Assembly: GCF_963678975.1 (NCBI RefSeq)
Contig: NC_089272.1
Coordinates: 3,158,359 to 3,222,358, forward strand
Reading direction: 5' to 3'
Origin: Dysidea avara
Taxonomy: Eukaryota; Porifera; Demospongiae; Dictyoceratida; Dysideidae
Length of the DNA: 64,000 bases
The translations under genes were made by a program, and so were the position numbers. Shown one piece after another: positions 2,891-54,586 of the stretch; position 1 is the first letter of the stretch; each line of letters opens with the position of its first letter. The notes beneath the pieces were generated by a model. That model saw only the letters and a program-made list of their open reading frames with translations, was not told the origin of the DNA and did no database searches.

Positions 2891-3286
2891 CACCTATTGT
2901 GACATTCACCCAGTCAACATACAATGTTGATGAAGATGATGGACCAGTACAACCTGTACTAATTCTCAGTAACCCATCATCAACTGATATTACTATCAGT
3001 GTGTTTAGTACTGATGGATCAGCTACTGGTAAGGACACATTATTACCTACTATTGAAGATTCCTGTTTATAATTTACAGGAGGAGGTGTTGACTACAGTT
3101 CTGGACCATACAATGTGACAATACCTGCTGGACAGATCAGTGTTACATTTGATGTTCCAATAAATGATGATAATGTGTTTGAGGAAAATGAGGAATTTCA
3201 CCTAACAATCGATCAATTCTCATCACTCAATGGTGTGATTATTGGTAGTCCAAACGTAGCAGTTGTGAATATGTCAGATAATGATG
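2891..3286 (+). CDS. Calx-beta module 1 (exons 2891-3028 and 3080-3286)
   Basis: A 138-bp exon follows a CATCTAG acceptor and ends at ACTG/gtaagg. A 51-bp intron follows, then a 207-bp exon after TTTACAG that ends GATG/gtgggt. Differences from the other modules include GPVQPVLI in the first half and LTIDQFSS with NMSDND in the second. The upstream splice phase (1) implies a preceding exon that was not recognised. Confidence 0.85.
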
Positions 3287-6200
3287 GTGGGTGATCATAA
3301 AAATATGGAGTATATATATATTATGTATATTGTTATCTGTAATTTAGCACCAACTCTGAAATTTAACCAGTCAGCATACAATGTTGATGAAGATGATGGA
3401 CCAGCACAACCTGTACTAGTTCTCAGTAACCCATCATCAACTGATATTACTATCAGTGTATTTAGTACTGATGGATCAGCTACTGGTAAGATTGTGTGCA
3501 TTTGTTTATCAGTGAATATATGTACACTATAAGTAACAGGTACTGTATATCTACTTCATACTTAAATAATAGTCTGTAGCTTCAAGGCCAACAAGAATCC
3601 TATCTGCACACTTGAATTAAATGCAATTCTTTGCAATTCAGTAATATATTCAGGTGTAAATACGTGTGCTCTCTGCCTGTACTTGTAGTGTTCTGATGCT
3701 AATGTCATAAGGACATTGGAGGATGTATAATGACGTGTTTTGTCTATACAGTGAAAACAAGTAAATTGAGATCCTTAAATTTAAGATATTCCTTGACATA
3801 TAGCTGTAATGATGTAGCTATTACTTTGTAAAGCAATAGTACAATTGGCCCCTGAATATTTGTGGCCAAAAATACTGTCTCTATTGGTTGCTTTGGTGAG
3901 ATTGGAGGTGAAAGAAGCTTCTCATCTACTCACTAATACTGTACCTGCTACTCACTACTTGCTCCTCACTGTCTCATCTCTCATCTTTAAGGTGTAGAAG
4001 CCTCATACCAGCACACTCCCTTCTAAAAGTAATGGAGGTGCTGCTGTTAAAAGCTAAACTGGTGAAACCATCCCAACATTGTATGATGTACAGATACTAC
4101 ATACGTACTAGCACTACCAGTACTATGCAATGATACTGGGATTTTATGTCTGCTAGCTGTGGAGAGGAATAAATACTGCCATGCTGGCAGCTATGTCTGT
4201 GTTCCTCATTGTACTGCAGCTGGATATCATCTTGTCAAGAGTTCATAATAATTTATTTGTATGGTGGAGAGTGTCTAACTTGAATGCATTCACCAAACAC
4301 CCTGCGTAAAGTAACAGCTCAGCCTTATTTCAGAACAAAGGCTTTGCCTTCATCAACACTAATCAACACCAATCAACAGTTTTTTATCCCCAGTGAAGGT
4401 GTTGATTTGATAAAAGGTGAACTTTGGTGAACTTTATGCAGGGTGTTTGTACAGGCCATACTGAGAGTTAAACACTCTCCCCCATACAAATTATTATTAT
4501 GAACTTTTGATTTTGTGGCACCAGGTAATGGCTACACTGGCTATGTATTTAAGTGATTCATCATCAGGCAAGTGTAGAAGTGCATTGGCAAGAAAATACT
4601 GATGACTGAGAGATATTGTATCATCTTTATGAATTGCAATTGAAACTGATTTAGGAGTACAATAATGTGGTAGAGTGTAATGACAGTGGCGATTCTAGAC
4701 CTGACCTACAGGGGGGGCCAAGTAGGGAACAGCATAACTATTGTTGTTTGGATATAGTATAAAGTAGAATTTTCAGGGGGGTATGGGGGTGCAACCCCCA
4801 GAAGCTGCAGGATTTTTGCAATTTAAAGGCTTGAAAACAGCCTAAAATTTGTTCTAAAAACATGAAAAATGCTAAAAATAACAATGCCAATCTATACAGC
4901 AACTTTTCCCCAAGATTTTTTAAAAGTTATTTTTTAACAGGGGGGGCCATGGCCCCCCCTGGCCCCCCCTTAGAATCGCCTATGGTAATGCATAGATAAT
5001 AATTGTATACACAAGCAGACATTGGAAACATAAAGTAGCTACACAGAGTGAGGTTTAACACAGTACACATGCGGCACATAGCTACCTAATACACAGCCAC
5101 CATGATAAACATGATATCTTATAATGTATAGAGAAATCCTATCCCATGCATGCTCCTTCATTGTTATACGTGTATATGGCATTACATTGTTGCAATAGCT
5201 TGGAGCAAAGGGCATCCCCAAAGGCAATGGCTGCAATGACTCTCTTATAGTAGAGTGTATAGCACATAAATATGATGATTTTGTACACTTTTGTGAAAAA
5301 AGCATCAAACTTAGTACACCACATGGTTTGTACTTCCAGTGGCATTAATTTGTGGGTATAGTGCCATTGCATTGACCTTTGGTGACCTTTATGGCCATTA
5401 TAACATTGAAAAATATATCATTTTTGTCTTTATCTCCCTCAGACACTGTTTTACAATTAAGGGTCTTGTTGAAAGAAACAACTTGGTTTTATTTGAAGTC
5501 AATCAGTAATTTCATTCCAAAAATATGATCGCTTGTATTGGCCGTAAAATTTTATAAAGTTACCTTCCCATTGGTAATTTACACCCCAAGGGAAGATAAA
5601 TTCAAAGATTTTATGACTATTAAAAATGATTGTAACTTTAGAGTGGAATGAGCTATTTACTTAAAATAAAAATCAAGTTGTTTCTTAGGTTGACATCTTA
5701 AATTTGGAACCATGTTTTTTAACATGTAAAATGATGCCTCAGGGAGATAGATAAAAACAAATTGTCAGAATTTCAATACAAAAATGGCTGGAAAGGTCAT
5801 CATAGGTCAAATCTACAATGGCATTACGTATATCAAAAAATGAATTTCATTAGGAGTACAAATGATATGGAAAGTTTCATGCTTTTCTCACAAATGATGC
5901 AACTTTACACTGTGCTGCTCTACTATTATAACAGAATATTTAAATAAACCAGGAGCAGTAGAGCAGGCCAAAGAGTGAGGGGGCCAGACCGTAATTGTAA
6001 GCTGAAGACCAAAAGAGAAAAAAAGAAGCTTACTACTTTCTGACAATAGCTGCTCTACACCAAATATATCTCCTATATCTTCTTATTTATAATTATACAT
6101 TATGTAGTTAAGTAGCTTGCTACACTGCTTCTCTGAATACTGTGACTGCTCTATTAGAGTACCTAGATCTTGACTGTTCTATTAGAGTATCTCAATCTTT

Positions 6201-9200
6201 TCTTGCAAACACTGTCCCATAAAAGTGGGGGAACCATAGCACCCCCACCCCAGGCCCCCCTGTCTCCACCACCTATGAAATAAACCATTCATAACACCAC
6301 CCCCATATTAGTGTTGCCTGTCTGTTGGTGTTTGATGATTATTGATTACAATGGCATACAGGAGGAGGTATTGACTACAGTTCTGGACCATACAATGTGA
6401 CAATACCTACTGGACAGATCAGTGTCCTATTTGATGTTCCAATAAATGATGATAATGTACCAGAAAAAAGAGAAACATTTCTTCTCACAATTGATCAATC
6501 CTCATCACTCAATGGTGTGATTATTGGTAGTCCACATGTAACAGTTGTGAATATATCAGATAATGATGGTGAGTTTTGTTTTGAATTGTCTGCTATATAA
6601 TGTATGTACATGTATATTACAGCACCAACTATCAACTTCACCCAGTCGACATACAGTGTTGATGAAGATGATGGACCGGCACAACCTGTACTAGTTCTTA
6701 GTAACCCATCATCAGCTGATGTTACTATCAGTGTGTTTAGTACTGACGGATCAGCTACTGGTAAGGATACATTATTACCTTCAACTTTAACCCATTAATT
6801 CATCATACAGTACAGTAATACTGTGTAATCATAAAATGACTGGTTGTGTGGTGCATAGTTTAACTTCTAGCTTTTCAACTGTAGTCAGGCAGGTACTTAT
6901 AGGCAGATCAAAAATTGAATTTTAGCAGATTTTATTGTGGTCTAGCAATTTTTTTTTGATTTCTAATGCTAAATTTAATATATTTTTTGGCTAGGGATCC
7001 TTGTTTTAAAGCATATACCTTTCGAAGTTCCAATGAGCACCCATTAGATAGTGTAACATGAGACTCAGCATGTATAGCAAAATCACAATACCCCAGTGCA
7101 AGCATGCACCATCTTGAGATTCCAGTGTCTATGTTGTAGGCATGTAAATTTACAAAGGTGTACCACTACTTTTGGTCTCTCATGGATACACATGCAAAAT
7201 ACTGGATCATTTTAGTAAAATCTGGTTTGGGATATATGCGGCTTGAAACAAGCTAGGACACCTGCAGAAATTCAAATGAACTATATATGACTTCATCAAA
7301 TGGGATGCATGGATTATTTGCATATGGTACCTGCTATGTACAGTCACCCAGTGTTCAACTGGGTATCAAGAGTTTAGTTTATGCTAGAATCTGCACTTGA
7401 TTTAACTTAATAAGTTAAATATTCCACTGTGCAATGCTCATTGAATTACACTCAGTGAATAATTGCTAAAATCTAGGTGGAGGCACTAGCTATGAATGTT
7501 AATATGAATTACATCACTATTTCTGTAGCATTGTTAATTTATAATACCATTGATGTGTGATGATCAGTTGGCTAACTAGTCTGGTAGCATATAGAATATC
7601 ACAACTCACAAGTATTTATTATAGCTACAATATTTAGTATTTAGAGAATAAATTAATGCACAAGTATATGTGCAGAAGAGGAATGAAACAAGACATGATT
7701 GTGTACCATTAGTGTATTAATATTTCATGTCCCCACAGAAATTGTCTACATAATATTGTACAGTGGAACCTCAGTTATCCAAATCCCTTGGGACCAGGGG
7801 TGGTCCATAAGTCTGAAAAGTTTATATCTCTGAAACTGTGTATAAATTAGCTTACAATAGCACAAAGAACATTGGTAGATATTTTTTGTATTTCAACTAT
7901 ACCCTAATAGAACAGTTACTACTCTAATAGAGCAGTCATTTCTGTTGTTCAGTTAACCGAGAATCAGGATAAGTAGGGTCCGGATAACTAAGGTTCCACT
8001 GTACATAGCTCTTGCTCCACTACAATGAATTCCTGTACACTATAATTAAATTACAGGAGGAGGTGTTGACTACAGTTCTGGACCATACAATGTGACAATA
8101 CCTGCTGGACAGATTGGTATTCCATTTGATGTTCCAATAAATGATGATAATGTGTTTGAGGAAAAGGAAGATTTTCTCCTCACAATTGATCAATCCTCAT
8201 CACTCAGTGGTGTGATTATTGGTAGTCCAAATGTAGCAGTTGTCACCATACTGGATAATGATGGTGAGTGATCTTAAAGGATAGTAACCAAGAGTGTATG
8301 TATAATTTGGTGTTCAAAATGTATCTAGCTCCAACTGTTACCATCAACCAGTCAACATATAATGTTGATGAAGATGATGGACCAGCACAACCTGTACTAG
8401 TTCTCAGTAACCCATCATCAACTGATATTACTATCAGTGTATTTAGTACTGATGGATCAGCTACTGGTAAGGATACATTATTACCTCCAACTTTAACCCA
8501 TTGAAGATTCCTATTTATAATTTACAGGAGGAGGTGTTGACTACAGTTCTGGACCATACAATGTGACAATACCTGCTGGACAGATCAGTGTTCCATTTGA
8601 TGTTCCAATAAATGATGATAATGTGTTTGAGGAAAATGAAGAATTTTTCCTCACAATTGACCAATCCTCATCACTCGATGGTGTGATTATTGGTAGTCCA
8701 AATGTAACAGTTGTGACCATACTGGATAATGATTGTGAGTGAATTAGTGTTGTGTGTGCTGTATTCATTAAAATGTTGATCTGGATCGAGGAGTGACATG
8801 TTAAAAAATTATACTCCAAACTGAACAAAGCATTAATAATTTCTTTTGAACTTGTATAGTTTCTTTACATCCATATAGTACGCAGTTGTTATTATGTAGA
8901 ATCATGTTGATTATATGGTGTATCATCAACGTTTGTTTTCAACATATGTATGTAAATTACCTATTATTGTTACTCTACAGGTACACCGTGTACTACTCAA
9001 CCAATCACTGGGGAGGTCACTAGGAGGAGAGTGACAGTCACATTTTCAGCAAGTGATCCTATGGCTACTTTTAATTGCAGACTTGACAGAAGACGTTTTC
9101 AGCCTTGTAAGTGAAGGGATGTAGTTCTAACAACCGCACATAGACTGACATACTTAATATAAAATACTAACTATTTTATAGTGGAATATTATCTGGTATA

Positions 9201-15209: not shown

Positions 15210-18200
15210 ATGGAGATTTCCTATCATGTCTCATGGAGAAGAAATTCAAGAGGAGGTGGTAGCTGTTCTTCTCTTACAGTTAACAATGGCCTCCTGCTCC
15301 GTGGAGAAGGCAGCATGGTGTGCCAGTACGGTTGTTCAGGTACTATTACTACAATGTCATACATTTGTACTGACTTCAGCATTGATGAAAACTGGTCATT
15401 TGGAGAATATCGCATTGCTTATAATTTTACTGATCGTACTGAAGATACTATTGCAATTGGCTTTACAGGACGTTGTTGGATTTCCCCATTAGGCTGTAAC
15501 TGGAATATCTCCACAACATTTTCTCTCAACATAAGGAATGATACTGGTCATATCAATTCATCTCCTCGTGCTATAACCACTCCTGTTCTACGTTTACAAC
15601 AAGGATGTAACCACACTATTCCTCTAGCAGTCAGTGATCCAGATGGTGACATCATTAAGTGTAGGTGGGCTGTAGGTAGGGAATGTGCAGGTGTCTGTAA
15701 TGTAACTGCCTTTCCTGGAGCACAGCTTGATAGTGATACATGTACTATACACTATGAAGCTAATAGGGGAGCTAGAGTTTGGGCTGCTGCAGTAATGATA
15801 GAAGACTTTATTCCTGGTTCACTGCGACCTATCAGTAGTGTTGCTCTTCAGTTTATTGTGCTGGTAGTTGCTTCCACTGACCCATGTTCTCAACAACCAG
15901 AATTCATTGACCCAACACCACTACAAGGATCATGTGTAGCAGTTCCACCAGGAATAACGTTCGCTACACAATTGACTGCTACTAGTGGTAGTTCAAGTGC
16001 CTCAATAACTGAAATACAAACTGTTTCACCAATTGGAACTAGAAGGGGAGAGTTACAGCAATTTTCAGGCACTAATATCTACTTTGTTAATATTACATGG
16101 GAGCCTGCAGCTAACCAATTGAATGAGTCATTCATGTTTTGCTATGTAGCTGTCAATTCTGTGGGTCTAGCTAGTGAACAGTCTTGTATACAACTTTTGG
16201 CTGGTACGTTTCCACCAACACCTAACCCAGGTGAATCTGTGCCCAGTCAACACCTAGTTCACCCATCCAACATCACCTTACCTATTTCATTTGATAGGAA
16301 CATACAACGCCCCTCAGTGACTGCTTACATTGTCTTTTATAAATTCAATTCAGGAAGAGAAATATATAGGATTGATGTAGCATTATCGCCAGAAGTGGAT
16401 TTTGACAAGCCAAGACAACTTGTAGTTTCTCCCAACTTTTTGTTTGCTGAAAAAGGAAAATTTTACATTAATTTACAGAGAGGAGTTGTGAGAGGTACCG
16501 AGGGGTGTGGACCACCTAACGAGCCAGTAACCAGTAGAACATTTTGGACATTTGAAGTTTTAGATGTTACTCCACCAGTCCTCAGATATATTCAGAACCC
16601 CACATTGAGTAATGGTAACATTTCTTTGTCATGGGAGAGTAATGAGAATGTAACATGGGAATGTAGTCTTGTAGTAAATTCCATAACATCTTCAGTTAAT
16701 TGTTCAGGAGCTAACTGGAGAGGATATAATCTCAGTGAGGGTAGGTATGAATTAATGATCACTGCAACTGATGATGCTGGCAATGTGGCAACATTAGTAC
16801 ACACATTTGAGGTTGATCTGACACCACCTACTGTTACTATAGTACGAGTGCCTCCATCATTATCCAATCAAGTAAGGTCAACTATTAGATTTTCATGTGA
16901 CGAGTTTTGCACTGCAGAATGTCAGTTATCATCTGATGTATCAGAAGGTAGTCCGATTTCTTGTAACAGTAGGTCATTTATTACACCCAGTTTGCAGCAT
17001 AACAACAGCTACACATTGTCCATAATAGCTTTGGACCGCATTGGCAACAGAGCTCAGCCTGTATCTTATCAATGGGAAACAGATTTTGTTAGCCCAGTTG
17101 TTTTTGGTGTTAGTAATACAAGTGTTCCATGTAGCAAAATAAGTCCAGTTATTACAGGCCAAGCAGAGGCATCAGATGACAGGTCCACATTTACATCTCT
17201 GACTTACAGTGACCAAAACCTTGGCTGTTTCATTAGAAGAACTTGGGTAGCTATGGATGATGCTGATAACAGAGCTCAGTTGGTTCAAACCATAGAACTG
17301 GAGTTCTCCCCAGTCTTGTTCCTTTCACCTCAGCTATCATTTCCTTGTGATAGTGCTTCAGGTGTGATCCAGATACCAGAGAATACTATCACTACTCCAA
17401 ATCCTTGTAGACTTCCTCTTCAGCTTTCTTTTGAGGACTCTGTTAGTGAGCACAATTGTCCTAGTGAGTTTGTGCGAAACTGGACAGTAAATATTTGTGG
17501 CAGCACTGTATCACACTCGCAGAATATTTCTTTGTTTGATGTTTGTCCTGTGCATGCATGTGGTAGAAATGAGAGCACTCCACGTGGAGTATGTACTTTT
17601 GGGGAATGTCAGTGCAGCAGACCATTTTTTGGAGAAGACTGTGATGATCTTATCCATGAGCCAATTGCTGATATAGTAAGAACTATTCCATTACAGGAAG
17701 CTCAGCAGTTTTCCACTGTGTTAAATGTATCTCAAGGCACTCCTCCATTAACATGGACATTGGTATTTGGACCACCCCAGTTGAGGGTGGACCAGTTTAC
17801 TGGACAAGTTAGTTGGGATAGAGTTCGAGCTGGTAATCACACTATTATAGTGCAAGTAGAAAATCAGGTTGGACAAGATGAGATTTCATGGAACCTTACA
17901 GTAATACCAGGATACAGTACCTTCTTGAATCCCGTTTCTCCTAGAATATTTCCTAAAGCGCAACCAATTGTATTAACTGGAATAGTCCAGTATACACCAG
18001 ACAATGTAGTAAGAGATTTACTTGTGGGTTTTGTGCCAGTATACATTGACATTACTAGCAATGGGGTAACTAGAACACTGGTGACAGTCACAGATAGAGA
18101 TGGCAGTTATTCATTGACATTTTATCCTGCTATGACTGAACATGGACTCTACCAAGCTACATCCAGACATCCAAGTGTATCACAAACTACCACACAAACT

Positions 18201-21200
18201 GAATGGGGAATATTAGGGTTAACAGCTATACCAAATAGGATCAGTTTGACTGGAGAGGCAATCAGTGGGTTTGAAGAGATCTTCCATAATGTTACAATTG
18301 TATCAAATGGTGGACCTGGAGACTTAGATGAACTAAGTGCTACTTCATCACTTAGAGATGCAGGGACTGTTAATGTAACTGTGTTACTTGAAGGGCTACC
18401 TTTTAATGGTACACTTACAGCTGGGAACCAAGTGGCTGTAAGCATTTTGATTAAGACCTTAACTCCACTTAGTGGCTCTTTTGCAATACTTATAGGAAGT
18501 AGGCAAGGTACTTCACTACAAATCAGTGTAAGCTTTCAAATTAGACCAATTTTGCCAAGTTTTCTGATTGAGCCATCATCATTGAACACCAGAATAATCC
18601 GGGGTACATCAAGGATATTTGAAATCACTGTGACAAACACTGGGAGAATTACAGCCAATAACATCCGACCGTTACTGCCTAGTAACAATGTAATATCACT
18701 TGTGAGCTTTGGGAATGCACAACAAAATGGAAGCAGCCTAGACTTGGGGACTGGACAAAGTGCCATGTTGTCTCTTTTAGTTCAAACACCAGAAACACAG
18801 TCACTTGGTGAGATATCTACAACTATTGCTGTGATCAGCGCACAAGTGTCTGCATCCATTCCTGTTACATTAACAGTGTCCTCTGATGTGTTAATGAATT
18901 TGACAGTTTTTGTGGAGGATGAGTTCACGTATTTTGCATCTGATGAGCCATTAGTCAATGATGCAGCTATTACACTGATTAACTATCAACGTGGTATTAG
19001 GATCACACTAACAACTGAGGCTGGTAATGGTACAGTGACATTTATCAACATTCATGAAGATCGTTATGAAATGTTTGTAGAAGCTCCTGATCATCTAACA
19101 GTTCACCAGGTCATAATCACATCAGTGGATGATCCAGTTATTCCAGTATTTATGCAGAGACAAACAGTGACATACACATGGAGTGTGACTCCTGTTACAT
19201 TTGAAGACAACTATGTTCTCACTGTTGAAGCAGATTTTGTAACACGTGTCCCCATACCAATAGTGACAGTAACTCCAGAGGAAATTGATCTCGAACTATT
19301 TGAACTTGGCTTCTACAGTGCATTGCAAATAAACATCACTAACCAAGGTCTTATCAGAGCTAATGATGGTCAGTTGCAGTTCCCAGATGGTCATCCATTT
19401 CTGGAGTTTATCTCAGATACAACTGAACTGGGTGATATAGAGCCACTGTCATCCACTATTGTAACTATCAATGTATCACGTAGAAGCATTGAGAAACGTG
19501 TAGTACCTGTGGCTGTAGCAGCTGGAGCTGTCTTGAGAATAGGAGCAGGGTTGGCAGCTAGGGCAGCTGGAGCAGCAGCAAGAGCAGCAGTTGCAGCAGC
19601 AAGGAGTGCAATACGCAGAACAGCGAGAAATCTAGCTACATCAACAAGAGCTCAGTGGATTACTTATGCCGTTCAGGTAGCGTACAGCTATGTGTGTCGT
19701 GGTGAAATAACACGAACAATCCCAGTAGTGTTGAAGAAACTAGTACTTATTGAATCACTGGTACCTCAACCTATTGTAACTCAAATTGGTTGTATTAGCT
19801 GTAGTATAAGAGGACCATCAGTTACAGTTGATGGGCCGACATTTAACTTTCGAGGATACTCAGCTAGAACACCGGCCTTTTGTGACCCATGCATTCAAGC
19901 CTTGGTTGGTTGTGCTCCAACTCCCAGTCTTCCTCTTATTGGGTGTATACCATTATACTTGAGCGGGTCACGTCCTCTTCAATCAACTGTGGATGCCATT
20001 AATTGGGTTAGTTGTGCAATAAATTTTAAGTGGTTAACTTGGATTACTTGTGGGGTCAATGTAGCCTCAATGTGTTTAGATGTCAACATTGGTAAAAAGC
20101 GACAAAGTCTGGGTAGAAGTGTAAATGAACTAGAGGAAGCCATGTATCCTGTCCTTCAAAGTATTGACCTTGCTATTGAAGTGCTTGGAGATGAAGCTTG
20201 GCTATCTGTTGGAGATCCCTTGTGGGTATCAAATATTTTACAGCCATCTTTGGATGACAGCAGTGATGCAGGTATACTAATATCTACCGGGGAATACTCT
20301 ACTATCCTTACAGCTCCTCCTCCCAATGGAACAACAACAGAAATGATTCAAAGATTAGTGGAACGACTAAACAATACATTACAGGGCTGGAGTAATGGTC
20401 AGTTAGAACCAGTGGAAGGAACAAACATGGTTTCATTTAGTACTGTTGAGGAGTTGAGCAATACCATAAACACTTACAATAATATAGCTATTGACAAGGG
20501 GTTCTCATCATATATAGAGGCTTACAGTTTTGCTAGTGGTGAAATTAATCAACTGGAGAGTTGGGAAGAGGAAGAAGGTGTGTGTGCCGTAGTTAGGATT
20601 CGTATTGAACAAGAACTGGCAGTGACCAGAACAGCATTCCTAGCTAGACTAGAAATTGAGAATATGGAGGCTGCTCCACTTCAAGATGGATCTCTGGAAT
20701 TTATAATAACTAACTCTGGCACAGGAGAACAAGCCACTCACTTGTTTGCTATTGGTAATGGAAGTTTGTCTGGTTCACTGACTGATGGTGATGGTGGGTG
20801 GACACTACCTAGTGAAGCATCAGGAAGTATAGAGTGGCTCATAATACCATTTTCTGAAGCAGCTCCAGAATCTGATCGATCTTATGGTGTTGGTGGTACT
20901 CTTAGGTATTCTTTAGATGATGAGAATATCACCATTCCTCTAGTTCCAACAGTTATCACTGTTATACCTGACCCTTCTTTACTAGTTCACTACTTTTGGG
21001 AAAGATTTGTAGTTGGAGATGATCCATTCACTGATGAGGTGGAAGATTCTGTACCATTCACTCTTGGAGTGGCTGTGAAAAATTCTGGTCATGGAGTAGC
21101 CAGTAGTCTTCAGATCACTTCAGGACAACCAGAAATAATTGAAAATGAGAGAGGACTGTTAATAAATTTTATGATAATTGGTGCAATGATTGGTAATGGA

Positions 21201-21867
21201 AGTATTGAGCCATCTTTAACAGTGATGTTTGGAGATGTTCCTCCGGATGCAACCAAAGTAGTAAGATGGCAGATAATATCAAGTTTACAAGGGGAGTTTA
21301 GGAATTACTCTGCTACATTTGAGAACATCAATCCACTTGGTGATCCAAACCTCTCAATTCTTGATGAATTAGAAATTCATGAACTAATCAGAAATGTAAG
21401 AATATACAATTCACCAGAAGATGATGGAGTACTAGATTTCCTTGTTAATGAATTAGACGATCTTCTAGCATTCCCTGATGCTTTGTACAGTAGTAAAACA
21501 CTTGAACATTATAATGTCAGTGTTGGTACCATATTGTCTGTACGTAGTATAACAACAACATTACTGGAGGTGAGGACATTTACTAACACTACAGGATGGG
21601 TATACTACAGATATGCAGACTCAGAAAACTTACTGAGTACCACAGCTCCTGCTATTAATGCTACCAAGAGGGAAGGGAATTATACTACTTCAATACCATC
21701 AGAGAACTCCTGGATAACAAGGGATGAAGATATAATCACAAGACTTGACACTTTCTATCTTCACATTTTTGACAACATTACAACAAATGGTGAAATGGTT
21801 TTCAACATGAGCTTGTGTACTTCTGACTGCCCTCTTGCTGGAATGCGTTTTTCAAGATCTCCAACAG
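15210..21867 (+). CDS. Giant 6,658-bp exon of the large secreted protein gene
   Basis: It continues exon 1 in frame (EISYHVSWRRNSRG) for 2,219 codons with no stop, and ends CCAACAG/gtaaat in phase 1. The run-on to a stop at 21884 is intronic. Visible parts (residues of this exon): a DPDGDIIKCRWA segment near 145; paired-Cys Ig-like repeats 450-750; an EGF-like domain 779-811 with GVCTFGECQCSRPFFGEDC; a PxxTWTL...GQVSWD Ig-like repeat about 818-900; a DRDGSYSLTF carboxypeptidase-regulatory-like repeat near 955-970; several beta-sandwich repeats to 1430; an Ala/Arg-rich helix 1434-1485; a Cys-rich block 1526-1635; and a C-terminal region 1780-2130 with DDPFTDEVEDSVPF, LGVAV, QPEIIENERGLLINF and DELEIHELI. 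Many N-x-S/T sites and no membrane helix point to a secreted matrix or surface protein. Function unknown. Confidence 0.85.
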
Positions 21868-23180
21868 GTAAATATTCAATGTAACATTGTATATAACTAC
21901 TAAACAATCTGGACTTAAGAATTCTCCTTACTGTCAAATTATAATGTACTTTGATTCTTTATTTTTTTGTCAATTCCCATTTACCTTTAGCAAATGTTAT
22001 CTAATCCAAAACAACCAAGCTGTAAAAAAAGAGTGTGGCCCTCAAAAAGGCTATAGTGGAAAAAGATGTGAAATCCAAGGTGGCGGCCAAAAAATGGCTG
22101 TGATGGTACAGGTATGTTCAGCAGCCAATTTTGGCAGGTTTTGATAAACCTGTTTTTTTGCCAGTTTTGGCAACATTCAGTATCATACTTTTGCCAATTG
22201 TGGCAAAATTAGGCTTATTCCAGATGTTGGTAAATTTAGCATTGTCCATATTTTGCCAAATGTAGATCCAACATGTTGCCATTTTTGTCAATCTATTGGG
22301 TTCCATATTTTGCAGCTTTTGGGTTATTGCCAAAGTTGGAACACCCTTAAAAGCAAAGTCTGGCAATGTAAAGAATTTTATTTTGCCATTGTTGGCAATT
22401 TACGAAATGCAACTTCAAAGTTGTGACAATAACAGAATTAATATAAAAGTTACCAAGCTTCCAAAAACTGGCTCTTTTTATTAAGTCCAAATTTGGCAGG
22501 ACCTTTTTTTTTGTCAAATTTGGCAATAATTCGTAACCCCCATTATTGCCAACATTGGCATTATGTGGGATCTGAATTATTGCAAAAAAATAGAGCAACT
22601 TATTTTCCTTGGCAAGCTAAGGAGAATATACACAGCATTGTCATGGAACCAGTAAGTGCTTCAATTTCTCTCACAAGCATCTCAACAGTTATTCCAAAAT
22701 TGGAAGGTATCAGGTTTTACTTATATAGTGGTGTGTGTAACCATTGATTGTGGGATTGAGTTTCCATTTTTGGCAAGAAATAATATGTTTATAATTATCG
22801 TTTTTATTGCCAAGTTTGGCATGCCTACTTCATGCCAATAATGGAATCTTGGAAATTCTAACTTGCCAATTTGAAGAATCAAAATTAAACTTGCTAATTT
22901 TGGAAAGTATAAACTTACACCAACATTGGATATTATGAAACTTGCCAATTTTGGTAATTACAGAACTTGCCCATTTTGGAAATTTTATAAATTTACCAAG
23001 TTTGGACTTATAATCTTGCCAATTTCGGTAGCTATAAAAGCTTCCAGTTTTAAACCCCAAACTGAAATTCAATCCCACAATTAAAAGAAACGTTTGCAAC
23101 TATAAAAGGACATGGAATTTATGCCACTTTTGGAAATAACATAAAGCTGCTAGTGATATGTTTTTGAAGCAGCTATAAAA

Positions 23181-23475: not shown

Positions 23476-25028
23476 ACAGCCATTTCTTGGCTGCCACCTT
23501 GGATTTCACATCTTTTTTCACTATTAGTCCAGTGCCTAAGCCAAATATTCGTTCACTTTTTGATAAAAGCACCAATTTTTTTCAGAGTATGTGGATCGTG
23601 CAATAAGTGTTTTAAAAAGGGGAGGCATGTAAAAAAGTCCTCAGGAACACCCCTTTTTGCACCCTGACAAGAAAACTATTTGTTACTATTAAAAATCAAT
23701 CATGTTTCTATCAAGTTAACTTACAAAGCATACAGCTGGAACATAATAGCCTATTAGTAATCTATAAAAAAACAAATAGTTTTCTCACCTAGGCAGTAAA
23801 AAAAATCACTAAAATTTCCATTTGCAGGGATTCTGTTAAAGTTTTGGACCTTCAATGCTGACGATTGTGTAGTACTATGTACAAGGATCATCCTGATGTG
23901 TATTGTTTCTTTATTAAAGGGGTATAACAAAAGTTATTTAATGCTAAAGTCACAGGTAGATATCTCAACAGAAAACCATGAACTACACCAGTTTAATTAT
24001 CAAGCACAGAGCTTGAACAAAAGGTCCCTTGTCCTTATACTGGGCACCATATGAAAGGTAATTAAATTTCTAGTTTAATGAAGGCAGTTGCAAGTTGTTT
24101 CAACATCTTGTTCTCAAGTTACAGCACTTTCAATTCAGTGTAATATAGTGTTAGCAAGAAAGCACAAGGATGTGTCATAAGGTACTTCTTAGTGCTCAAA
24201 ATCTCACTTCATTGGAACCCAGCTCCTTTATGCTCATTATCACAGCATTAAGAAATACCTTAATACTCATCTGTGTGCTTTTCTTGCTTATACTATATTA
24301 CACTGAATTGAAAGCGCTGTAACTTGAGAACAAGATGTTGAAACAACTTGCGACTGCCTTCATTAAACTAGAAATTTAATTACCTTTCATATGGTGCCCA
24401 GTATAAGGACAAGGGACCTTTTGTTCAAGCTCTGTGCTTGATAATTGAACTGCTGTAGTTCATGGTTTTCTGTTGAGATATCTACCTGTGATTTTAGCAT
24501 TAAATAACTTTTGTTATACCCCTTTAATAAAGAAACAATACACATCAGGATGATCCTTGTACATAGTACTACACAATCGTCAGCATTGAAGGTCCAAAAC
24601 TTTAACACAATCCCTGCAAATGGAAATTTTAGTGATTTTGTTTACTGCTTAGGTGAGAAAACTATTTGGTTTTTTTATAGATTACTAATAGGCTATTATG
24701 TTCCAGCTGTATGCTTTGTACTGCTATGATACTAGGCCCAGCAGTTAACTTGATAGAAACATGATTGATTTTTAATAGTAACAAATAGTTTTCTTGCCAG
24801 GGTGCAAAAAGGGGTGTTCCTGAGGACTTTTTATGTGCCTCCCCTTCTTAAAACACTTAGTGCACTCTCCATATACTCTGTAAAAAGATTGTGCTTTCAT
24901 CAAAAAGTGAATGATTATGTCAATTTTAAGAGCTTATGTACTGCACTATATAGCCTTTTTGAGGGCCGCACTCTTTTTTTACAGCTTGGCTGTTTTGGAT
25001 TAGATTTCACTTCTTTTTGTATTTGTAT

Positions 25029-25219: not shown

Positions 25220-27065
25220 AAACTGTAGCTGAAACTCCCATTGGTTTATAGCTGAACTCTTTTCAGAGTGACTTGTTTCTAGCTGAACTCTTTACATGGT
25301 GATTTGCAGCACATATTTCTACAGGGTGATTTGTTTGTAGCTGATCCCTATAAGGTAACTTGTATCTAGCTGATATCTCTACAGGGTGACTTGTTTGTAG
25401 TTGATTCTCTACAGAGTGATTTGTCTGTAGCTGAACTCTCTATATGATGGTTCTTTGTAGCTGAATTCTCTACAAGGTAACTTCTTTTAGCTGATCTTTC
25501 TACAGGGTGACTTGTTTGTAGCTGAACTCTCTACATGATGGTTTCTTTGTAGCTGAATTCTCTACAAGGTAACTTCTTTTAGCTGATCTTTCTACAGGGT
25601 GACTTGTTTGTAGCTGAGCTCTCTACATGATGGTTTCTTTGTAACTAAATTCTCTACAAGGTAACTTCTTCTAGCTGATCTCTCTACAGGGTGACTTGTT
25701 TGTAGTCAACTTTTTACATGATGGTTTCTTTGTAGATGAGCTCTCTACAAGGTAACTTCTTCTAGCTGATCTTTCTACAGGGCGATTTATTTGTAACTGA
25801 ATTCTCTACAGGGTGATTTGTTTGCAGCTGAACTCTACATGGTGGTTTCTTTGTAGCTGAACTCTCTACAAGGTGACCTCTTATAGCTGAACTATCTACA
25901 CAGTGATCTTTTCGTAGCTGAACTCTCTACAGGGTGATTTGTTTGAGCTGAACTCTCTACAAGATGATTTGTTTCTAGCTGATCTCTCTATAGGGTATAA
26001 CTTGTTTGTAGCTGATCTCTCTACAGGGTGACTTGTTTATAGCTGAACTCTCTACAAGGTGATTTGTTTGCAGCTGAACTCTCTACAGGATGGTTTTTTG
26101 TAACTGAACTCTCTACAAGGTGACTTCTTCTAGCTGATCTCTCTACAGGGCGATTTGTTTGTAGCTGAATTCTCTGCAGGGTGATTTGTTTGCAGCCGAA
26201 CTCTGTACATGATGGTTTCTTTGTAGCCAAAGGGTGATGAAGTTGTAGCTGAACTCTCTACAGGGTGATTTGTTTGTAGCTGAACTCTCTACAGGATAGT
26301 TTCTTTGTAGCTGAACTCTCTGCAAGGTAATTTCTTCTAGCTGATCTCTCTACAACGTAACTTCGTGTAGCTGATCTCTCTACTGGGTGACTCGTGTCTA
26401 GTTGTACACTCTACAAGGTGATTTGTTTGTAGCTGAATGCTCTACAGGGTAATTTTTTGTAGCCAAACTCTCTGCAGGGTGATTTGTTTGTAGCTGAACT
26501 CTCTACAGGATGGTTTCTTTGTAGCTGATGTTGCTACAGGTGACTTCTTTCTAGCTGATCTCTCTACAGGATGGTTCTTTGGAGCTGAACTCTCTACAGG
26601 GTGATTTTTTCTAGTGAACTCTCTCTCGGGTGATTACTTCATAGCTGAACCCTCTACAAGGTGGCTTCTTCTATTTGATCTCTCTACAGTGTGATTTATT
26701 TGTAGCTGAACTTTCTACAAGATGACGTTTTCTAGCTGAGCTTTCTCTTATTTCTAGCTGATTTCTCTACAAAGTAACTTGTTAGTCTAGCTGAAGTCTT
26801 TACATGGTGGATTTTGGTTGTAAAACCCTCTGAATGAAGACTTGTTTGTAGCAGAACTTCTACAGAGTAAATTGTTTGTAGCTGACCTCTCAACAGGGTG
26901 CATGACTTGTTTATAGCTGAACTCTCTTCAGTGTGACTTGTAATGTTCTGAATCACTACAGCAATATATTTGTAGCTGAACTCTCTATAGGGTGACTTCC
27001 TTCTTGTTGAACTGTCTAGAAGATTAACTGTTTGCAGCTGAACTCCCTACAGAATAACTTGTAAT
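25220..27065. repeat. Minisatellite, about 31-bp period, about 1.85 kb
   Basis: The unit is close to GTAGCTGAACTCTCTACAGG plus GTGATTTGTTT, repeated roughly 55-60 times with variants (ACAAGGTGACTTCTT, ACAGGATGGTTTCTTT, AGCTGATCTCTCTACAGGG). Between about 25,440 and 25,860 three variant units alternate in fixed order, giving a higher-order repeat of about 92 bp. Because 31 is not a multiple of 3, frames rotate. The reverse-strand frames with repeated SPCREFSYKQ-like peptides are therefore repeat artefacts, not genes. Confidence 0.9.
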
Positions 27066-36448: not shown

Positions 36449-39391
36449 TTATGGAAATTGATCGGCATACCGCACTGGAGTCTTAATGGTTCTTTGTGAG
36501 CGTCGTAGTGTTGGTTCTGTAGCCAGTGCGGCAGGTGGCTGGAGTTCATATGCTCTAGGGGATTCGACCACTGGTTCACTTGTATCACATTCATATTCTT
36601 GGTCATCTAAGAAATCATCAACACTTGTGTCAGTATTAACAGGGGATGCCAATTTTCTCAAATCTTTTCTGTTCCTTCAGTAGTGTTGTCCCTGCGGTGT
36701 TATAATATTGTAAGAGCGAGGGCCATTTTCATTTATTCCGGTGACCTTGGCAGGTTTCCATTTGCCATCTTTTGCTGACACAAGTATTGAATCGCCAGTT
36801 TTTAGATGTTTCAGTGGCTTTGCATGTTGATTATAGTAAAATTTTTGCTTTCGTTGACGTTGGATAAGTTCTTTCTGCACTGTAGTTGGATTAATTGTTC
36901 TAGGCTGTAATAAGGTACCTGCAGTGGGTACAAGTGTTTTTGTCCGCCTTCCCATTAGGCGTTGGACAGGTGAACCAATGGCATCAGACCAGGGAGTGTT
37001 TCTGTACTCCAATAATGCTAATTGTAAATCTTTTCCGTCATGTACAGCTTTCTTCATTAGTCTTTTGACAATTTGCACAGCCTTCTCAGCCATTCCATTC
37101 GATTGGGGGTGATATGGGCTGGAGGTGTGATGATTAAACTGATATTGTTGGGTAAAGCATCGAAATGTATGACTAGAGAATTGTGGTCCATTATCTGTAA
37201 TCAGGACATCAGGTATTCCATGTCTGGAAAACTGTGACCTACAGATTGCTATTACTTGATTGGCTGTCATGCTAGTAAGTTCGTCTACTTCAACATATCC
37301 GGAGTAGTAGTCTGCCAAAACAAGAAATTGCTTCTTTTGTAGCTCGAAAATATCAGCACCGACTTTTGCCCATGGGCGGTCTTGTACACTGTGCGGAAGT
37401 AAAGGTTCTTTTGAGTTGCATATTTGGTATGTGGTACAAATAGCACAAGATGAGATGATGTTTTCAATTTGTGATGACATTCCTGGCCAGTACAAGACAT
37501 CTCTAGCTCGTCTTTTGCATTTTTCTATGCCCAAATGGGAACTGTGAATTAGTTTGAGCATTGCTGGTTGCATTGCTTTTGGGATAATTATCTTTTCACC
37601 TTTAAAAAGAACTCCATCATTAAAAGATATTTGGTCACGGAATGTCCAAAATGGCAAACACTGGGCTGGCACTTTTGATCTGTCATCTGGCCATCCATCT
37701 GTACAGAGTTGCATCAAGTGTTGTAAAACTGGGTCGAACCAAGTCTCTGTTTGCAATAGGTGTAGTTTGTCATCTGAAATAGGTATTGTAGTGAGTACAT
37801 TTACCTCAAATTCAAAGGAAGTACAACTGTCGGTTGGTTCTGTCATGTATGCCCTTGACAAAGTGTCTGCAATTACTAGTTGCTTTCCAGGACGGTATAC
37901 TAGATTGATTGGGTACTTTTGTATTGACATAATCATTTTTTGAAGTCTGGCCGGAGCTTGGTAAAGTGGCTTTCTTAAGATGGCTTCCAAGGGCTTGTGA
38001 TCTGTCTCTACCTCAATGACGGATATCCCATATACGTAGTCATGAAATTTATTGCAGCCAAATACAATGGCGAGCATTTCCTTCTCGATTTGAGCATAGT
38101 TTTGTTGACATGTCGTGAGAGCTTTAGACGCATAGGCGATGGGGTGATTATCTTGTAACAAAACAGCTCCTGAACTGGCATCAACAGATAATTTAATAGG
38201 TCTTTTGGGATTAAAATATTTGAGGACAGGAGTTTTGGTTATCAACTCTTTCAACAATGTGAAACTCTTTTGTTGTTCAGTTTGCCACTGCCATTCTACA
38301 TTCTTCTCCAAAAGGGCTCGAAGTGGTGAAGCTACATGAGATAAATTTGGAATGAATTTACCTAAGTAGGTTAACATACCTAGAAATCTTTGTAGATCTT
38401 CTCTGCTTTCAGGGCAGGGCATGTCTATCACAGTTCTGGTTTTCTTCGGGTCAGGCTTCAGTCCGTCTTTACTGAGGATATGTCCGATGTAGCTAATTTC
38501 ATTCAGTTTTAGTTGGCATTTACTCTTGTTTAGCTTGAGGTTTCGCTGTCTCACTCTTTCCAAAACTTTTTTCAAACGTTTGTCATGCTGTTCATCAGTT
38601 TCTCCCCATATGAGTAGGTCGGCAACAACAACTTCTACTCCGTTGATGTCCTGAAACATGTCTGACATGATCCTTTGAAAAATGTCCTGGGATGATGATA
38701 GTCCAAAGGGGAGGCGCTTAAACATGTACCATCCAAAAGGTGTGTTAAATGTGCACAACTTGGCACTGGATGGGTCTAGCTTCACTTGCCAAAATCTAGA
38801 GCTGGCATCTAGGACTGAGAATACTTTGGCATTTGGCATTCTAGTGACAATTTCTTCGATTGTGCTCATTGGGTAAGGTTCACGCTTTATGGCTTTATTC
38901 AGGTCACGTGGGTCTATGCAAAATCTTAGGCTGCCATTAGGTTTCACAATAGTGACCATGCTATTTACCCAGTCTGTGGCTTCTTCAACTTTTTCAATTA
39001 CATCTAGCTCTTCCATTCGGTTTAATTCTGCTTGGATCTTGGGCCGCAAAGTGACTGGAACTCGTCTAGGCATGTGAACAACTGGTTGGCAAGTTTTGTC
39101 TACTTTGATGTGATAGTCAGTGTTGCTTATGGAACCCAATCCTTCAAACACGTCACTGTAAGAGTCCAGGAAATCAGTATCATTGTTGTTGATGGCATCC
39201 AGGCGTTGCACTAGGTTCATTTCCACACATGTCTCCAAACCTAAAATGTTTGGAACTTCTTGGTCGATAACTTCAAAGTCGACAACATAAAGATTTCTTT
39301 TGTGTTCACATTTCATGGTAACTCTGCCACATGCATTGAGGCGTTCACCACCAAATGCAACAAGTCTTGCATGTGATTGTTGTAGTGGCAT
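36449..39391 (-). pseudogene. Gypsy retrotransposon pol: end of protease, RT, RNase H, integrase (inactivated)
   Basis: The reverse-strand frame runs from 39391 to a TGA at 36677-36679 and continues in the same frame to 36449, so the TGA looks like a premature stop. Order: protease tail (VAFGGERLNACG, IDQEVPNILGLE); RT with FSVLDASSRFWQVKLD and, where the YxDD box should be, VVVADLLIWGE, with Ala (codon 38621-38623) at a catalytic Asp position; RNase H with LSVDASSGAVLLQ (shorter than usual), KEMLAIV and TDHKPLE; integrase zinc finger H-x4-H..C-x2-C; catalytic D, D, then 35 residues and E (DNGPQF to GMAEKA). The first 49 residues of the longest frame, 39392-39538, belong to an inserted transposon, not to Gypsy. 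Confidence 0.9.
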
Positions 39392-40196
39392 CATAGATAT
39401 TAGAGAGAAGGGATAGGCAACCGAGCGCGCGCCGTGTATATCTACCATTGATTGTGGTTGAAGCACTCCTCGGTATTGATTAAATCCATGCGGACAGGAT
39501 GGCAGTTTGTGGTTTAGTTGTCTTACAGTTGATTTCAACCACCTTGTGGTATTTTAGTTGATATACAAGACTTTTAATGCTTCTGGCTTCTGTTGTTTAA
39601 TCGTCTTGGGTGGTTTTCATCGCCATTTACGATTTTGATCATCAATGGGTACCTCCGTTTTTTGTCTACCTGTTACGAAGAACAGAAGTCTAGTTCCACT
39701 GGGGAAATAGTGCTGAAGTCTTCGCAATACTTTGAAGTTTTGCACAGTACCACTGAAAGATGTTTCGCGCATAACAGCGTTTGTGTTGAAGTTGATAAAT
39801 CATGGAGTAGTATTTTAAAGAACCAAGATGAGACTGCCAAAGGGCGTTAATCAAGCGGAATAATAAAATAAAGTACACCATGCAAAACTATGTTACTTTA
39901 GGGTTATTGTGGCATTGTTTGCCAGTTGAAAGTGAACTTACCATGAACACAACAGGTACACAAAAAAATCGTGTTGACTGAGATTAAAATGATTGATGGC
40001 GGCAAAAACTCAAAACAAGACTTACAATAGGAGTTTGCCTAGTACTTGTAAAACATAAAGAGATTGTCATGAAATACTCCACGCCCGTAGAAAGTAGTCC
40101 AGAACAGAAGACACCATTTTGGCCTCATAAATTCACCAACGGCGGAGTGTTTCAGGGTGCGCGCTAGTTTCTAATCCCTACACTCTAATATCTATG
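39392..40196. mobile_element. DNA transposon (805 bp) inserted in the Gypsy protease, 7-bp target duplication
   Basis: The ends CATAGATATTAGAG and CTCTAATATCTATG are inverted repeats, imperfectly extended to about 40 bp (AGGGAT, then CxxGCGCGC). GTGGCAT flanks both sides exactly (39385-39391 and 40197-40203). Removing the insert would bring the two halves of the protease reading together, which confirms the boundaries. No transposase is recognisable inside; the 85-codon frame at 39593-39850 has no family resemblance. A 32-bp element with the same termini is at 54286-54317. Confidence 0.9.
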
Positions 40197-40203
40197 GTGG
40201 CAT

Positions 40204-40343
40204 TGAGCTGAGTTGGTGGTATCGTCTCTTGGAAATAATGTTACACTGTGCACCTGTGTCGATTTTGAAAGAGGTTCTTTGATGGTTTACTAGGATGGAC
40301 ACTTTCCAGTCTGGTGTTTTAGTGGTTGTACATTGTACCATGC
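40204..40343 (-). pseudogene. Gypsy protease N-terminal part, cut by the 805-bp insertion
   Basis: The reverse strand reads FKIDTGAQCNIIS, the D-T-G-A active-site loop of a retropepsin, and stops being Gypsy-like at the GTGGCAT insertion site. The rest of the protease is at 39391 and below. The upstream join to gag requires a frame change near 40365, which may be either a mutation or the normal gag-pol shift. Confidence 0.75.
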
Positions 40344-41007
40344 CTATAAAGAGGTCGTCGGGAGTGTCAGATCCATCATGTGCAACACTGTGGACTTTGC
40401 GGTGTTACTTTGTAAGCGGGCGACTTCTGCAAACTTTGGAAAATGATTCTTCCGCCCACAGTTGTAGCACTCCATGCCATAGGCTGGGCAATTCTGGTGA
40501 CATTGGTGTTGAGTACCACATTTGTCACATTGGGTTCTTCGTGGCTTGGCTGTACGTCGTTTTTGAACAGTGAAGAGTTCTTGATCAACTGACTCTTTAT
40601 TAGTGGCACATGAACTAAGGGTTTTAAGTTGACTTGTTGTTGCTTCGTTTGCTCTACAAATATCCAATGCCTTTTGTAGGGTTAACTCACTGTCTTTAAG
40701 CAATCTTGCGCGAGTTCTGTCACAAATAATTCCACATACGATGCGGTCACGAATTAAGCTGTCCTTTACATTGGCAAATTCACACGTCTGTGCCTTCTTT
40801 TTTTAAGTCTGTCACGTATTGGTCAATACTTTCTCTGACTTGTTTATTCTGTGTGTTAAATTTGTGCCTTTCCGAGGTGACATTTTTACGCGGGTTACAG
40901 TATCCGTCGAACTTCTCTGTTATTTTGTCTACTTTGCTTTTATCGTCGTCACTTTCCCAAGTAAAAGTATTGTAAACCTCGAGTGCTTCAGTTCCTGCCA
41001 CGTGAAG
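40344..41007 (-). pseudogene. Gypsy gag, C-terminal part (5' truncated)
   Basis: The reverse strand carries HVAGTEALEVYNTFTW near 40,960-41,001, typical of the middle of Gypsy-type gag, then a matrix/capsid-like stretch in that frame to about 40,790. A frame change follows at a run of A/T, and the rest (LTLQKALDICRANEA, then the zinc knuckles CDKCGTQHQCHQNCPAYGMEC and CYNCGRKNHF) is in the frame of 40344-40703. The gag N-terminus, leader and 5' LTR are missing: the sequence stops at a palindromic element beginning 41008. Confidence 0.75.
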
Positions 41008-48067: not shown

Positions 48068-48530
48068 GGGATTGACTAAGTTCACCCAATCCCATGTCAC
48101 TCACGTGACTAGTATTATGTAACCACAGTAGATTGCGGGTGAATCACGAGGTGACGTAACACGTACCTTACAACTCTTATTAGAGCGCTTTTACGATGAT
48201 GACTTGCAGGATGCTTGTAAGAGAAGAACAGCGGTTTCTTTGTTGGGACTAGACCAAGTTTCACTGGGGTTAGCTACTGAACAAAGAAACTAGAGTACTA
48301 TAAATGGTAAGTAGGAATGTATTGCATTGTACTGGTAGCTAGCTCCATAGTAAGGCTACAGTCCACTAATACTTCCACTGTGGCCAAATAACTGGGCTGC
48401 TGCCGTAGTTCTTCCAAGACAGTACAGAGGCCAAACAGAAGTTGTCAGGCTATGGTGCATGGCTGTTAAATACTCATTCTGTATTCTGTTAGTGCTGCTG
48501 TTGGGTATGCCCTAGTTGTTGCATGCTGCC
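48068..48530. repeat. Left arm of a long-range inverted repeat (partner 54036-54586)
   Basis: It begins GGGATTGACTAAGTTCACCC and ends near TGTTGGGTATGCCCTAGTT. Shared blocks include GTGACGTAACACGTAC, AAAGAAACTAGAGTACTATA, TACAGTCCACTAATACTTCC and CAGCCCAGTTATTTGGCC (inverted). It lacks the 32-bp insertion present in the partner, so it preserves the empty site near 48,313. Confidence 0.8.
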
Positions 48531-54035: not shown

Positions 54036-54586
54036 TAGGCTGCAAAAACTAGGGCATACCCAACAGCACTACCAGTGAATACAGAATGAGCATTAATAGC
54101 CATGCACCGTAGCATAATTAACAAGCTGACAATTGGCTGTTTCTTCTGCTTGGCCTCTGTACTGACTTGGAAAAAGAACTACGGCAGCTTTGTAAGCAGC
54201 CCAGTTATTTGGCCACAGTGGAAGTATTAGTGGACTGTAGCCTTACTATGGAGCTAGCTACCAGTATAATGTAATACATTCCTACCATAGATATTCGAGT
54301 GTATTCTAATATCTATGTTCCTACTTACCATTTATAGTACTCTAGTTTCTTTGTTCAGTAGTTACCCCACTGAAACTTAGTATAATCATTGGAAGACATT
54401 TGATCACTTACACTGATTTTCAAAACAAACCGCTGTACAAACATCCTGCAAGTCTGAAACGTAAAAGCGCTTTAATAAGAGTTGCAATGTACGTGTTACG
54501 TCACCTCGTGATTCACCCGCAAAATACTGTGGTTAAATATACTAGTCACGTGAGTGACATGGGATTGGGTGAACTTAGTCAATCCC
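54036..54586. repeat. Right arm of the long-range inverted repeat (partner 48068-48530)
   Basis: Inverted copy of 48068-48530, separated by 5.5 kb. It ends AACTTAGTCAATCCC. Differences: the 32-bp insertion at 54286-54317 with its target duplication, extra sequence near 54390-54440, and scattered substitutions. The pair could be the ends of one 6.5-kb element, but no clear target duplication flanks it. Confidence 0.8.
54286..54317. mobile_element. 32-bp minimal derivative of the CATAGATATTAG transposon
   Basis: Only the two ends are left: CATAGATATTCGAGTG joined to TATTCTAATATCTATG. TTCCTAC lies on both sides (54279-54285 and 54318-54324), a 7-bp duplication as for the 805-bp element at 39392. 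The mirrored arm near 48,313 has a single TTCCTAC and no insert. Confidence 0.85.

What the first reader, a model, noticed from the sequence alone, without database searches (positions are those of the whole stretch)
54279..54324. 32-bp transposon consisting only of its two ends, with the empty site preserved in the window
CATAGATATTC..GAATATCTATG-like ends sit back to back, flanked by TTCCTAC twice, in the right arm of a long inverted repeat. The left arm near 48,313 has one TTCCTAC and no insert. Same ends and duplication length as the 805-bp element at 39392. It shows either that a tiny derivative can move or that an element deleted its whole interior after landing.
Basis: seen in the sequence. 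Interest (0 to 1): 0.7.

Follow-up and report, generated by a model that had tools for sequence, protein, structure and literature searches.

The report
Scar left by a departed P-type transposon
The 32 bases are most likely not a tiny jumping gene but the scar left where a P-element-type transposon was cut out and the broken ends were joined; the same genome holds many other such scars, which show where the cutting enzyme cuts.

Summary
Observation confirmed: 54286-54317 is 32 bp made of two CATAGATATT ends back to back between 7-bp duplicates (TTCCTAC); the other arm of the host repeat holds the empty site. Interpretation changed: this is best read as an excision footprint of a P-superfamily transposon. 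(1) The own genome (551 Mb) has 186 matches to two such ends with 2-30 bases between (reversed-pattern control 0). The 50 listed give 35 distinct sequences of 22-44 bp, so they arose separately and are not copies of one mobile 32-mer. Exact 7-bp duplicates flank 38 of 48 sites read. (2) A 4,936-bp element with the same end start, a perfect 31-bp inverted repeat and a 7-bp duplication carries P-transposase domains (PF21787, PF21789). (3) Of 49 footprint ends that match a known end for 15 nt or more, 47 stop at 15-18 nt; Drosophila P transposase cuts 17 nt inside. (4) 14 of 17 host copies found carry this scar in one arm; 3 such arms and 17 of 17 opposite arms lack it: one old event, copied with its host. 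Drosophila P excision junctions look the same, so the kind is known. Seven sites with longer shared inner sequence remain unexplained.

The parts
54279..54285 (.). left copy of the 7-bp target-site duplication, TTCCTAC
54286..54317 (.). 32-bp excision footprint; proposed reading: 15 nt of one P-type end (CATAGATATTCGAGT) joined to 17 nt of the other (reverse complement CATAGATATTAGAATAC)
   Evidence: the split into 15 + 17 is inference
54318..54324 (.). right copy of the 7-bp target-site duplication, TTCCTAC
48311..48317 (.). empty site in the left arm (single GTAGGAA)
48068..48523 (+). left long inverted-repeat arm of the host element
54041..54586 (-). right long inverted-repeat arm of the host element, carrying the footprint
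39392..40196 (.). 805-bp non-autonomous element with related ends; 40 matches in the genome (lower bound)
39385..39391 (.). left 7-bp duplication GTGGCAT of the 805-bp element
40197..40203 (.). right 7-bp duplication GTGGCAT of the 805-bp element

Best explanation
It is the scar of a cut-and-paste excision. An element of a P-superfamily family with CATAGATATT ends inserted in the right arm of an older, about 6.5-kb inverted-repeat element and duplicated 7 bp (shown by the empty arms). A P-type transposase then cut it out: one strand at the element's edge, the other about 17 nt inside, so each donor end kept a 3' tail of about 17 nt of element end (inferred from where the scars stop and from published Drosophila P biochemistry). 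End joining fused the two tails after slight trimming, 17 nt of one end + 15 nt of the other = 32 bp (inferred from the junction). The host element later multiplied with the scar in it, giving the 14 scarred copies found (shown).
For: Genome-wide: 186 places match two exact 10-nt ends with 2-30 bases between; reversed-pattern control 0. The 50 listed give 35 distinct sequences, 22-44 bp, 28 of 50 being 30-32 bp. Exact 7-bp duplicates at 38 of 48 sites read with flanks, one mismatch at 4 more; the 32 distinct exact duplicates average to GT(T/G)N(A/C)AC, close to the GTANTAC of Galileo, a P-superfamily element with mostly 7-bp duplications (PMC4168063 passages). Family: L093:1316-6251 (4,936 bp) has a perfect 31-bp inverted repeat beginning CATAGATATT, 7-bp duplication AGTGAGT, and frames with TNP-like RNaseH_N (1.9e-22) and RNaseH_C (2.2e-5); the genome has at least 151 PF21787 matches. 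Cut length: against six 25-nt reference ends, 49 of 94 ends (47 distinct sites) match for 15 nt or more: 15 nt in 11, 16 in 6, 17 in 12, 18 in 18, 19 in 1, 20 in 1. The commonest scar (30 bp, 5 of 50 listed, at 4 different flanks) is what two 17-nt ...AGAGTAC tails would give if they anneal by GTAC (17+17-4). A scar 0.6 kb from the 4,936-bp element holds exactly its first 17 nt (L093:701-717). Empty sites: host arms; and a 37-bp scar inside a C9 copy of the P element at a site that is empty in the C1 copy. Precedent: Drosophila P excision junctions have the same layout, duplication + up to 17 nt + filler + up to 17 nt + duplication (PMC2895639 passages; 17-nt cut also PMC7776569 passages).
Against: No full-length parent was found at the same site with the same duplication. 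The window scar needs one mismatch (position 14) to fit the 805-type right end and carries C at position 11 on the other side; its exact parent family is unknown. Two of the six references were versions with C at position 11 that I wrote after seeing footprints. 45 of 94 ends match the references for 14 nt or less, so their retained length was not measured. With one mismatch allowed, 3 of 94 ends reach 19, 20 and 23 nt. In the 805-type ends base 18 is A and can often be assigned to either side, so 17 and 18 cannot be told apart. L049, L065, L073 and L082 share AGAGCCTAC..., and L079, L081 and L024:5416-5463 share AGAGG(C/T)GCGTAA, which look like more than 17 nt of other ends. Ten of 48 sites lack an exact 7-bp duplicate. 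The pattern demanded 10 exact nt per side and at most 50 bp overall; the comparison search for 51-81 bp did not complete, and 48- and 59-bp forms do exist in sampled DNA. Only 1 of 7 805-type copies read has AGAGTAC at both ends. No THAP domain was found in the four L093 frames scanned.
Confidence: 0.9

Rival explanations
1. The element landed intact and later lost its interior by deletion or interrupted gap repair (as P-element internal deletions and MITEs arise), not by end joining of the cut donor ends.
For: Larger non-autonomous derivatives exist here (805, 832 and 448 bp with exact 7-bp duplicates), and 48- and 59-bp forms too. Seven sites keep inner sequence that looks longer than 17 nt.
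Against: Deletion ends should scatter along the element; of 49 ends that match a known end for 15 nt or more, 47 stop at 15-18 nt although the references run to 25 nt.
Confidence: 0.07
2. A two-end DNA of about 30 bp is itself mobile: transposase supplied in trans moves it as a unit.
For: Some types recur at unrelated flanks with different duplications, for example the 30-mer at L052, L075, L080 and L085, and the 32-mer AGAGTACACTCT (either strand) at L024, L063, L066 and L078.
Against: 35 sequences among 50 listed places; recurrent types are also what annealing of fixed tails predicts; Drosophila P is reported to need at least 138 bp and 216 bp at its ends (PMC1562414 passage); two ends 30 bp apart could hardly be brought into one complex (inference).
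Confidence: 0.02
3. The 32 bp is an ancestral part of the host repeat and the left arm has lost it.
For: 14 of 17 host copies found carry it in the right arm.
Against: Loss would have to remove exactly 39 bp, one 7-mer included, from 17 left and 3 right arms; and the same ends with 7-bp duplicates occur at many unrelated sites.
Confidence: 0.005

Closest known systems
Excision junctions of the Drosophila melanogaster P element (PMC2895639, passages seen)
   Same: Target duplication on both sides, up to 17 nt of each end, microhomology or filler at the join
   Different: 8-bp duplication and non-complementary tails there; here 7 bp, and one end type would put a self-complementary GTAC at the tail tip; natural scars, not recovered in the laboratory
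Galileo, P superfamily, Drosophila (PMC4168063 and PMC2775673, passages seen)
   Same: Mostly 7-bp duplication with a palindromic preference (GTANTAC there, GT(T/G)N(A/C)AC here)
   Different: Galileo has long, internally repetitive inverted repeats; here 31 bp (4,936-bp element) or an imperfect repeat of about 40 bp (805-bp element)
Zebrafish Pdre2 / THAP9 (PMC10983969, passages seen)
   Same: P-superfamily element outside insects
   Different: 8-bp duplication, 13-bp terminal repeats
P-derived MITEs of Anopheles gambiae (PMC1562414, passages seen)
   Same: Non-autonomous relatives that share ends with a P master, comparable to the 805-bp element
   Different: 8-bp duplication; they are mobile units, the 32-mer is read here as a scar

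Membership tests
P-type excision footprint | Remnants of both element ends between a duplicated target | tested here: met
   for this site; 38 of 48 sites exact
P-type excision footprint | Remnants end at the transposase's inner cut (17 nt in Drosophila) | tested here: met
   47 of 49 measurable ends stop at 15-18 nt, 2 exceed 18; 45 of 94 ends not measurable; 17 and 18 not separable in 805-type ends; seven sites with longer shared inner sequence stand against it
P-type excision footprint | Junctions vary from site to site | tested here: met
   35 distinct among the 50 listed of 186
P-type excision footprint | Empty site in paralogous DNA | tested here: met
   host arms; P-element copies on C9 and C1
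P-type excision footprint | Full-length parent element at the same site in a relative | tested here: not met
   none among the 17 host copies found; not a required feature, but the direct proof is missing
P superfamily (elements with CATAGATATT ends) | P-type transposase domains between such ends | tested here: met
   for the 4,936-bp element; the autonomous partner of the 805-bp family was not found
P superfamily (elements with CATAGATATT ends) | 7- or 8-bp target duplication | tested here: met
   AGTGAGT, GTGGCAT, 7 of 7 further 805-type copies read
P superfamily (elements with CATAGATATT ends) | THAP DNA-binding domain in the transposase | tested here: inconclusive
   no hit in four frames scanned; other short exons not scanned
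P superfamily (elements with CATAGATATT ends) | 17-nt staggered cleavage by the enzyme | not testable with these tools
   inferred from footprints only
Mobile MITE | Same unit repeated at unrelated sites | tested here: not met
   junctions differ in sequence and length; a few types recur at unrelated flanks, as discussed

The most novel reading that the evidence does not exclude
One end type of this P family puts a self-complementary GTAC exactly at the tip of the 17-nt donor tail, so a break that in Drosophila has non-complementary tails would become cohesive and close to a stereotyped 30-bp scar. The end sequence would then be tuned for easy repair of the donor site, and the genome would be a natural, heritable record of end joining at P breaks.
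Probability: 0.15. Interest if true: 0.6.

Novelty: new member of a known kind. Interest (0 to 1): 0.4.

Why it matters
P-element excision and its 17-nt stagger are known mainly from Drosophila experiments. Here an unnamed animal-like genome appears to hold about two hundred natural scars of the same anatomy (186 exact pattern matches, some of them copies of one another), with retained ends stopping where the Drosophila cut predicts. If it holds, the cut geometry is conserved far from flies, it can be read from sequence alone, and the scars offer a natural series of heritable end-joining events. It also warns that very short two-ended repeats with target duplications need not be tiny transposons, even when there are many.

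Tried and rejected
Stereotyped 32-mer: the first three sites found (window, L013/L014, L015) were all 32 bp, which looked like one mobile unit; the genome list showed 22-44 bp and 35 sequences, so I dropped it.

First split of the window 32-mer as 18 + 14 (from the window copy's right end): replaced after one search showed that most 805-type copies read end in AGAGTACAGGG, which gives 17 + 15.

Wrong transposase: the PF12017 hit on C12 (1,244-aa frame with a PHD finger; L089) was fetched as a possible master. Its left boundary, where the C12 and C1 copies stop matching, begins CGAGGGGTCCGCC, not CATAG: a different family.

Viral contigs: the end pattern has 0 matches there. Papers: listings showed no title describing a genome-wide natural set of P-element excision scars; only listings and passages were seen, so this is not proof of absence.

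Searches that I wanted and that did not complete: retained length for the ends AGAGAG and AGAGTG, and the count for 51-81 bp remnants.

Full report
What is there. The 32-mer, its two TTCCTAC flanks and the single-copy empty site in the left arm are as described. The 10-mer CATAGATATT occurs in the window only four times: two ends of the 805-bp element and two ends of the 32-mer. The window is part of a 550.8-Mb genome in 108 contigs, GC 37.6%, CpG observed/expected 0.33: a eukaryote, probably an animal; the species was not identified.

The host repeat. A 121-bp query over the site found 14 right-arm copies with the 32 bp (12 over the query's full length or nearly so, 2 to query position 100-101) and 17 arms in which the two halves of the query overlap by exactly the 7-mer, that is, empty arms; three more arms (L009, L010, L011), partners of three of those 17, are empty too, two of them with TTCCTGC. 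So 17 host copies were found: 17 of 17 left arms empty, 14 of 17 right arms scarred, 3 empty. Of the left arms, I read the window one and L018 as sequence, and part of L019; the others rest on coordinates. One insertion and one scar in an ancestral copy, then amplification, explains this. The host element is about 6.5 kb with arms of about 0.5 kb and no frame above 111 aa between stops; its type was not settled.

The 32-mer is one of many. Two further 32-mers came up in the same search: one in a 4.2-kb transposon present twice at 99.8% identity (L024, L025; DDE_Tnp_4 1.5e-49 and YqaJ 3.3e-25; the name ISL2EU and the THAP-like start of its frame are recalled), duplication CTGCCAC; one at C1:15493730, duplication GTAGGAC. 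The whole-genome pattern of two exact 10-nt ends with 2-30 bases between has 186 places; the reversed pattern has 0. Fifty were listed: 35 sequences, lengths 22-44, 28 of 50 at 30-32 bp. Five of the 50 are copies of the window's host, and some others share flanks (L075 and L076; three places on C1 near 49.1-49.3 Mb have the same insert), so 186 is a count of places, not of events.

Duplications. Flanks were read for 39 of the 50 listed places (a fortieth was fetched without flanks), and for 9 more sites: the window, L024, two in L026, and five. Of these 48, 38 have an exact 7-bp duplicate, 4 one mismatch, 6 more. The 32 distinct exact duplicates (42 sites), taken on both strands, give G 39/64 at position 1, T 50/64 at 2, T 30 and G 16 at 3, and the mirror image at 5-7. 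Galileo, of the P superfamily, has 7-bp duplications with consensus GTANTAC in six Drosophila genomes (PMC4168063 passages).

The family. PF21787 (P transposase RNase H, N-terminal part) has at least 151 matches in this genome, several in sets of equal frame length, which suggests recent copies. The stretch round one of them (L093) holds an element at 1316-6251: perfect 31-bp inverted repeat beginning CATAGATATTCTACTCACCGGGATATG, duplication AGTGAGT, RNaseH_N in a 464-aa frame (1.9e-22), RNaseH_C in another (2.2e-5); a weak PF12017 match (8.8e-4) lies below that family's cut-off. So CATAGATATT ends with 7-bp duplications belong to P-superfamily elements here. The 805-bp element (40 matches found, 96-100% identical; 7 of 7 further copies read have exact 7-bp duplicates) shares the first 10 nt and a GGGAT a few bases further in. 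It has no coding capacity of that kind, and its own master was not found; placing it, and the window scar, in the P superfamily rests on ends and duplication.

Where the scars stop. In the P element of Drosophila the inner strand is cut 17 nt inside the element (PMC7776569 passages), and repair junctions keep at most those 17 nt per side, joined by microhomology or with templated filler (PMC2895639 passages). I compared both ends of 47 distinct sites with six 25-nt reference ends: both ends seen in most 805-type copies, the window copy's right end, the 4,936-bp element's end, and two versions with C at position 11 made after seeing footprints. Exact matches: 15 nt in 11 ends, 16 in 6, 17 in 12, 18 in 18, 19 in 1, 20 in 1; 45 of 94 ends match for 14 nt or less and are either trimmed or from families not among the references. 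An earlier run with three references gave a maximum of 18 in 84 ends. With one mismatch allowed three ends reach 19, 20 and 23 nt. The end at 19 (L071) has no duplication. The end at 20 is the C9 scar, 37 bp, which can be read as 17 + 3 + 17 or as 18 + 19. Base 18 is A in the 805-type ends and often belongs equally to the other side. A stop at 17-18 nt is what I claim, not 17 exactly.

How the joins look. The 30-mer with centre AGAGTACTCT (5 of 50 listed, 4 different flanks) equals two AGAGTAC tails of 17 nt annealed by GTAC. Only 1 of 7 copies read has AGAGTAC at both ends, so the parents of these scars would be that kind or a related family. The 32-mers AGAGTACACTCT equal 17 + 15. The window scar reads as CATAGATATTAGAATAC (17, one mismatch at position 14) + CATAGATATTCGAGT (15). 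The 59-bp form in L045 looks like two ends with AT-rich filler (by eye).

A second empty site. One 37-bp scar on C9 (duplication GTGGTAG) lies inside another copy of the same 4,936-bp element: its left flank matches L093 6143-6104 and its right flank 6110-6071, overlapping by the 7 bases that are single in L093. One P-type element thus entered a copy of the P element and left. The scar at L093:701-725, 0.6 kb from the intact element, keeps exactly its first 17 nt.

What does not fit. L049, L065, L073 and L082 share AGAGCCTAC and, in three of them, a further G/A-AAAC; L079, L081 and L024:5416-5463 share AGAGG(C/T)GCGTAA. If these are element ends, 22-25 nt are kept, more than the model allows; if they are filler, they should not recur. 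Their parent families are unknown. Remnants above 50 bp were not surveyed genome-wide. In about 294 kb of fetched DNA, partly chosen for its scars, 12 places had exact 7-bp duplicates round such ends (32, 26, 28, 48, 59, 448, 805 and 832 bp, some repeated) and 3 had one mismatch, against a mean of 0.8 in five first-order Markov resamplings.

Verdict. An excision scar of a P-type transposon, of a kind known from Drosophila, one of a large natural set. I rate interest 0.4: the object is explained, while the archive and the agreement with the 17-nt cut are useful.

Noticed in passing
L024:3494-5008 and L025:5072-6586: A 4.2-kb transposon with DDE_Tnp_4 and YqaJ frames has two copies at 99.8% identity that both carry a 32-bp scar, with an in-frame stop, in what looks like a THAP-type coding start (THAP recalled).
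   Followed up: partly
window 36677-40802 and L028:4733-5537: A Gypsy-type retrotransposon interrupted by the 805-bp element; a second 805-bp copy with the same duplication GTGGCAT lies about 45 kb upstream, so that stretch seems duplicated with its insert.
   Followed up: partly
L093:701-725 and C9:8915559-8915595: Two scars of the 4,936-bp P family lie 0.6 kb from, and inside, copies of that same family; local hopping or target preference could explain it.
   Followed up: no
L049, L065, L073, L082 and L079, L081, L024:5416-5463: Tiny two-ended elements that share longer inner sequences (AGAGCCTAC..., AGAGG(C/T)GCGTAA); parent families unknown, and they do not fit a 17-nt limit.
   Followed up: partly
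L089 (C12:5663700-5669900): A 1,244-aa frame with a weak P-transposase HTH match and a PHD finger (a Ulp1-like part is recalled), two near-identical copies, whose boundary begins CGAGGGGTCCGCC: another kind of DNA transposon.
   Followed up: partly
window 23545-24918: A long near-palindrome: 1.4 kb matches its own reverse complement at 90%.
   Followed up: no
window 25240-27060: A tandem-repeat block with units 70-80% alike.
   Followed up: no
window 15210-21884: A single open frame of 2,224 aa, unusually long for an animal-like gene region.
   Followed up: no
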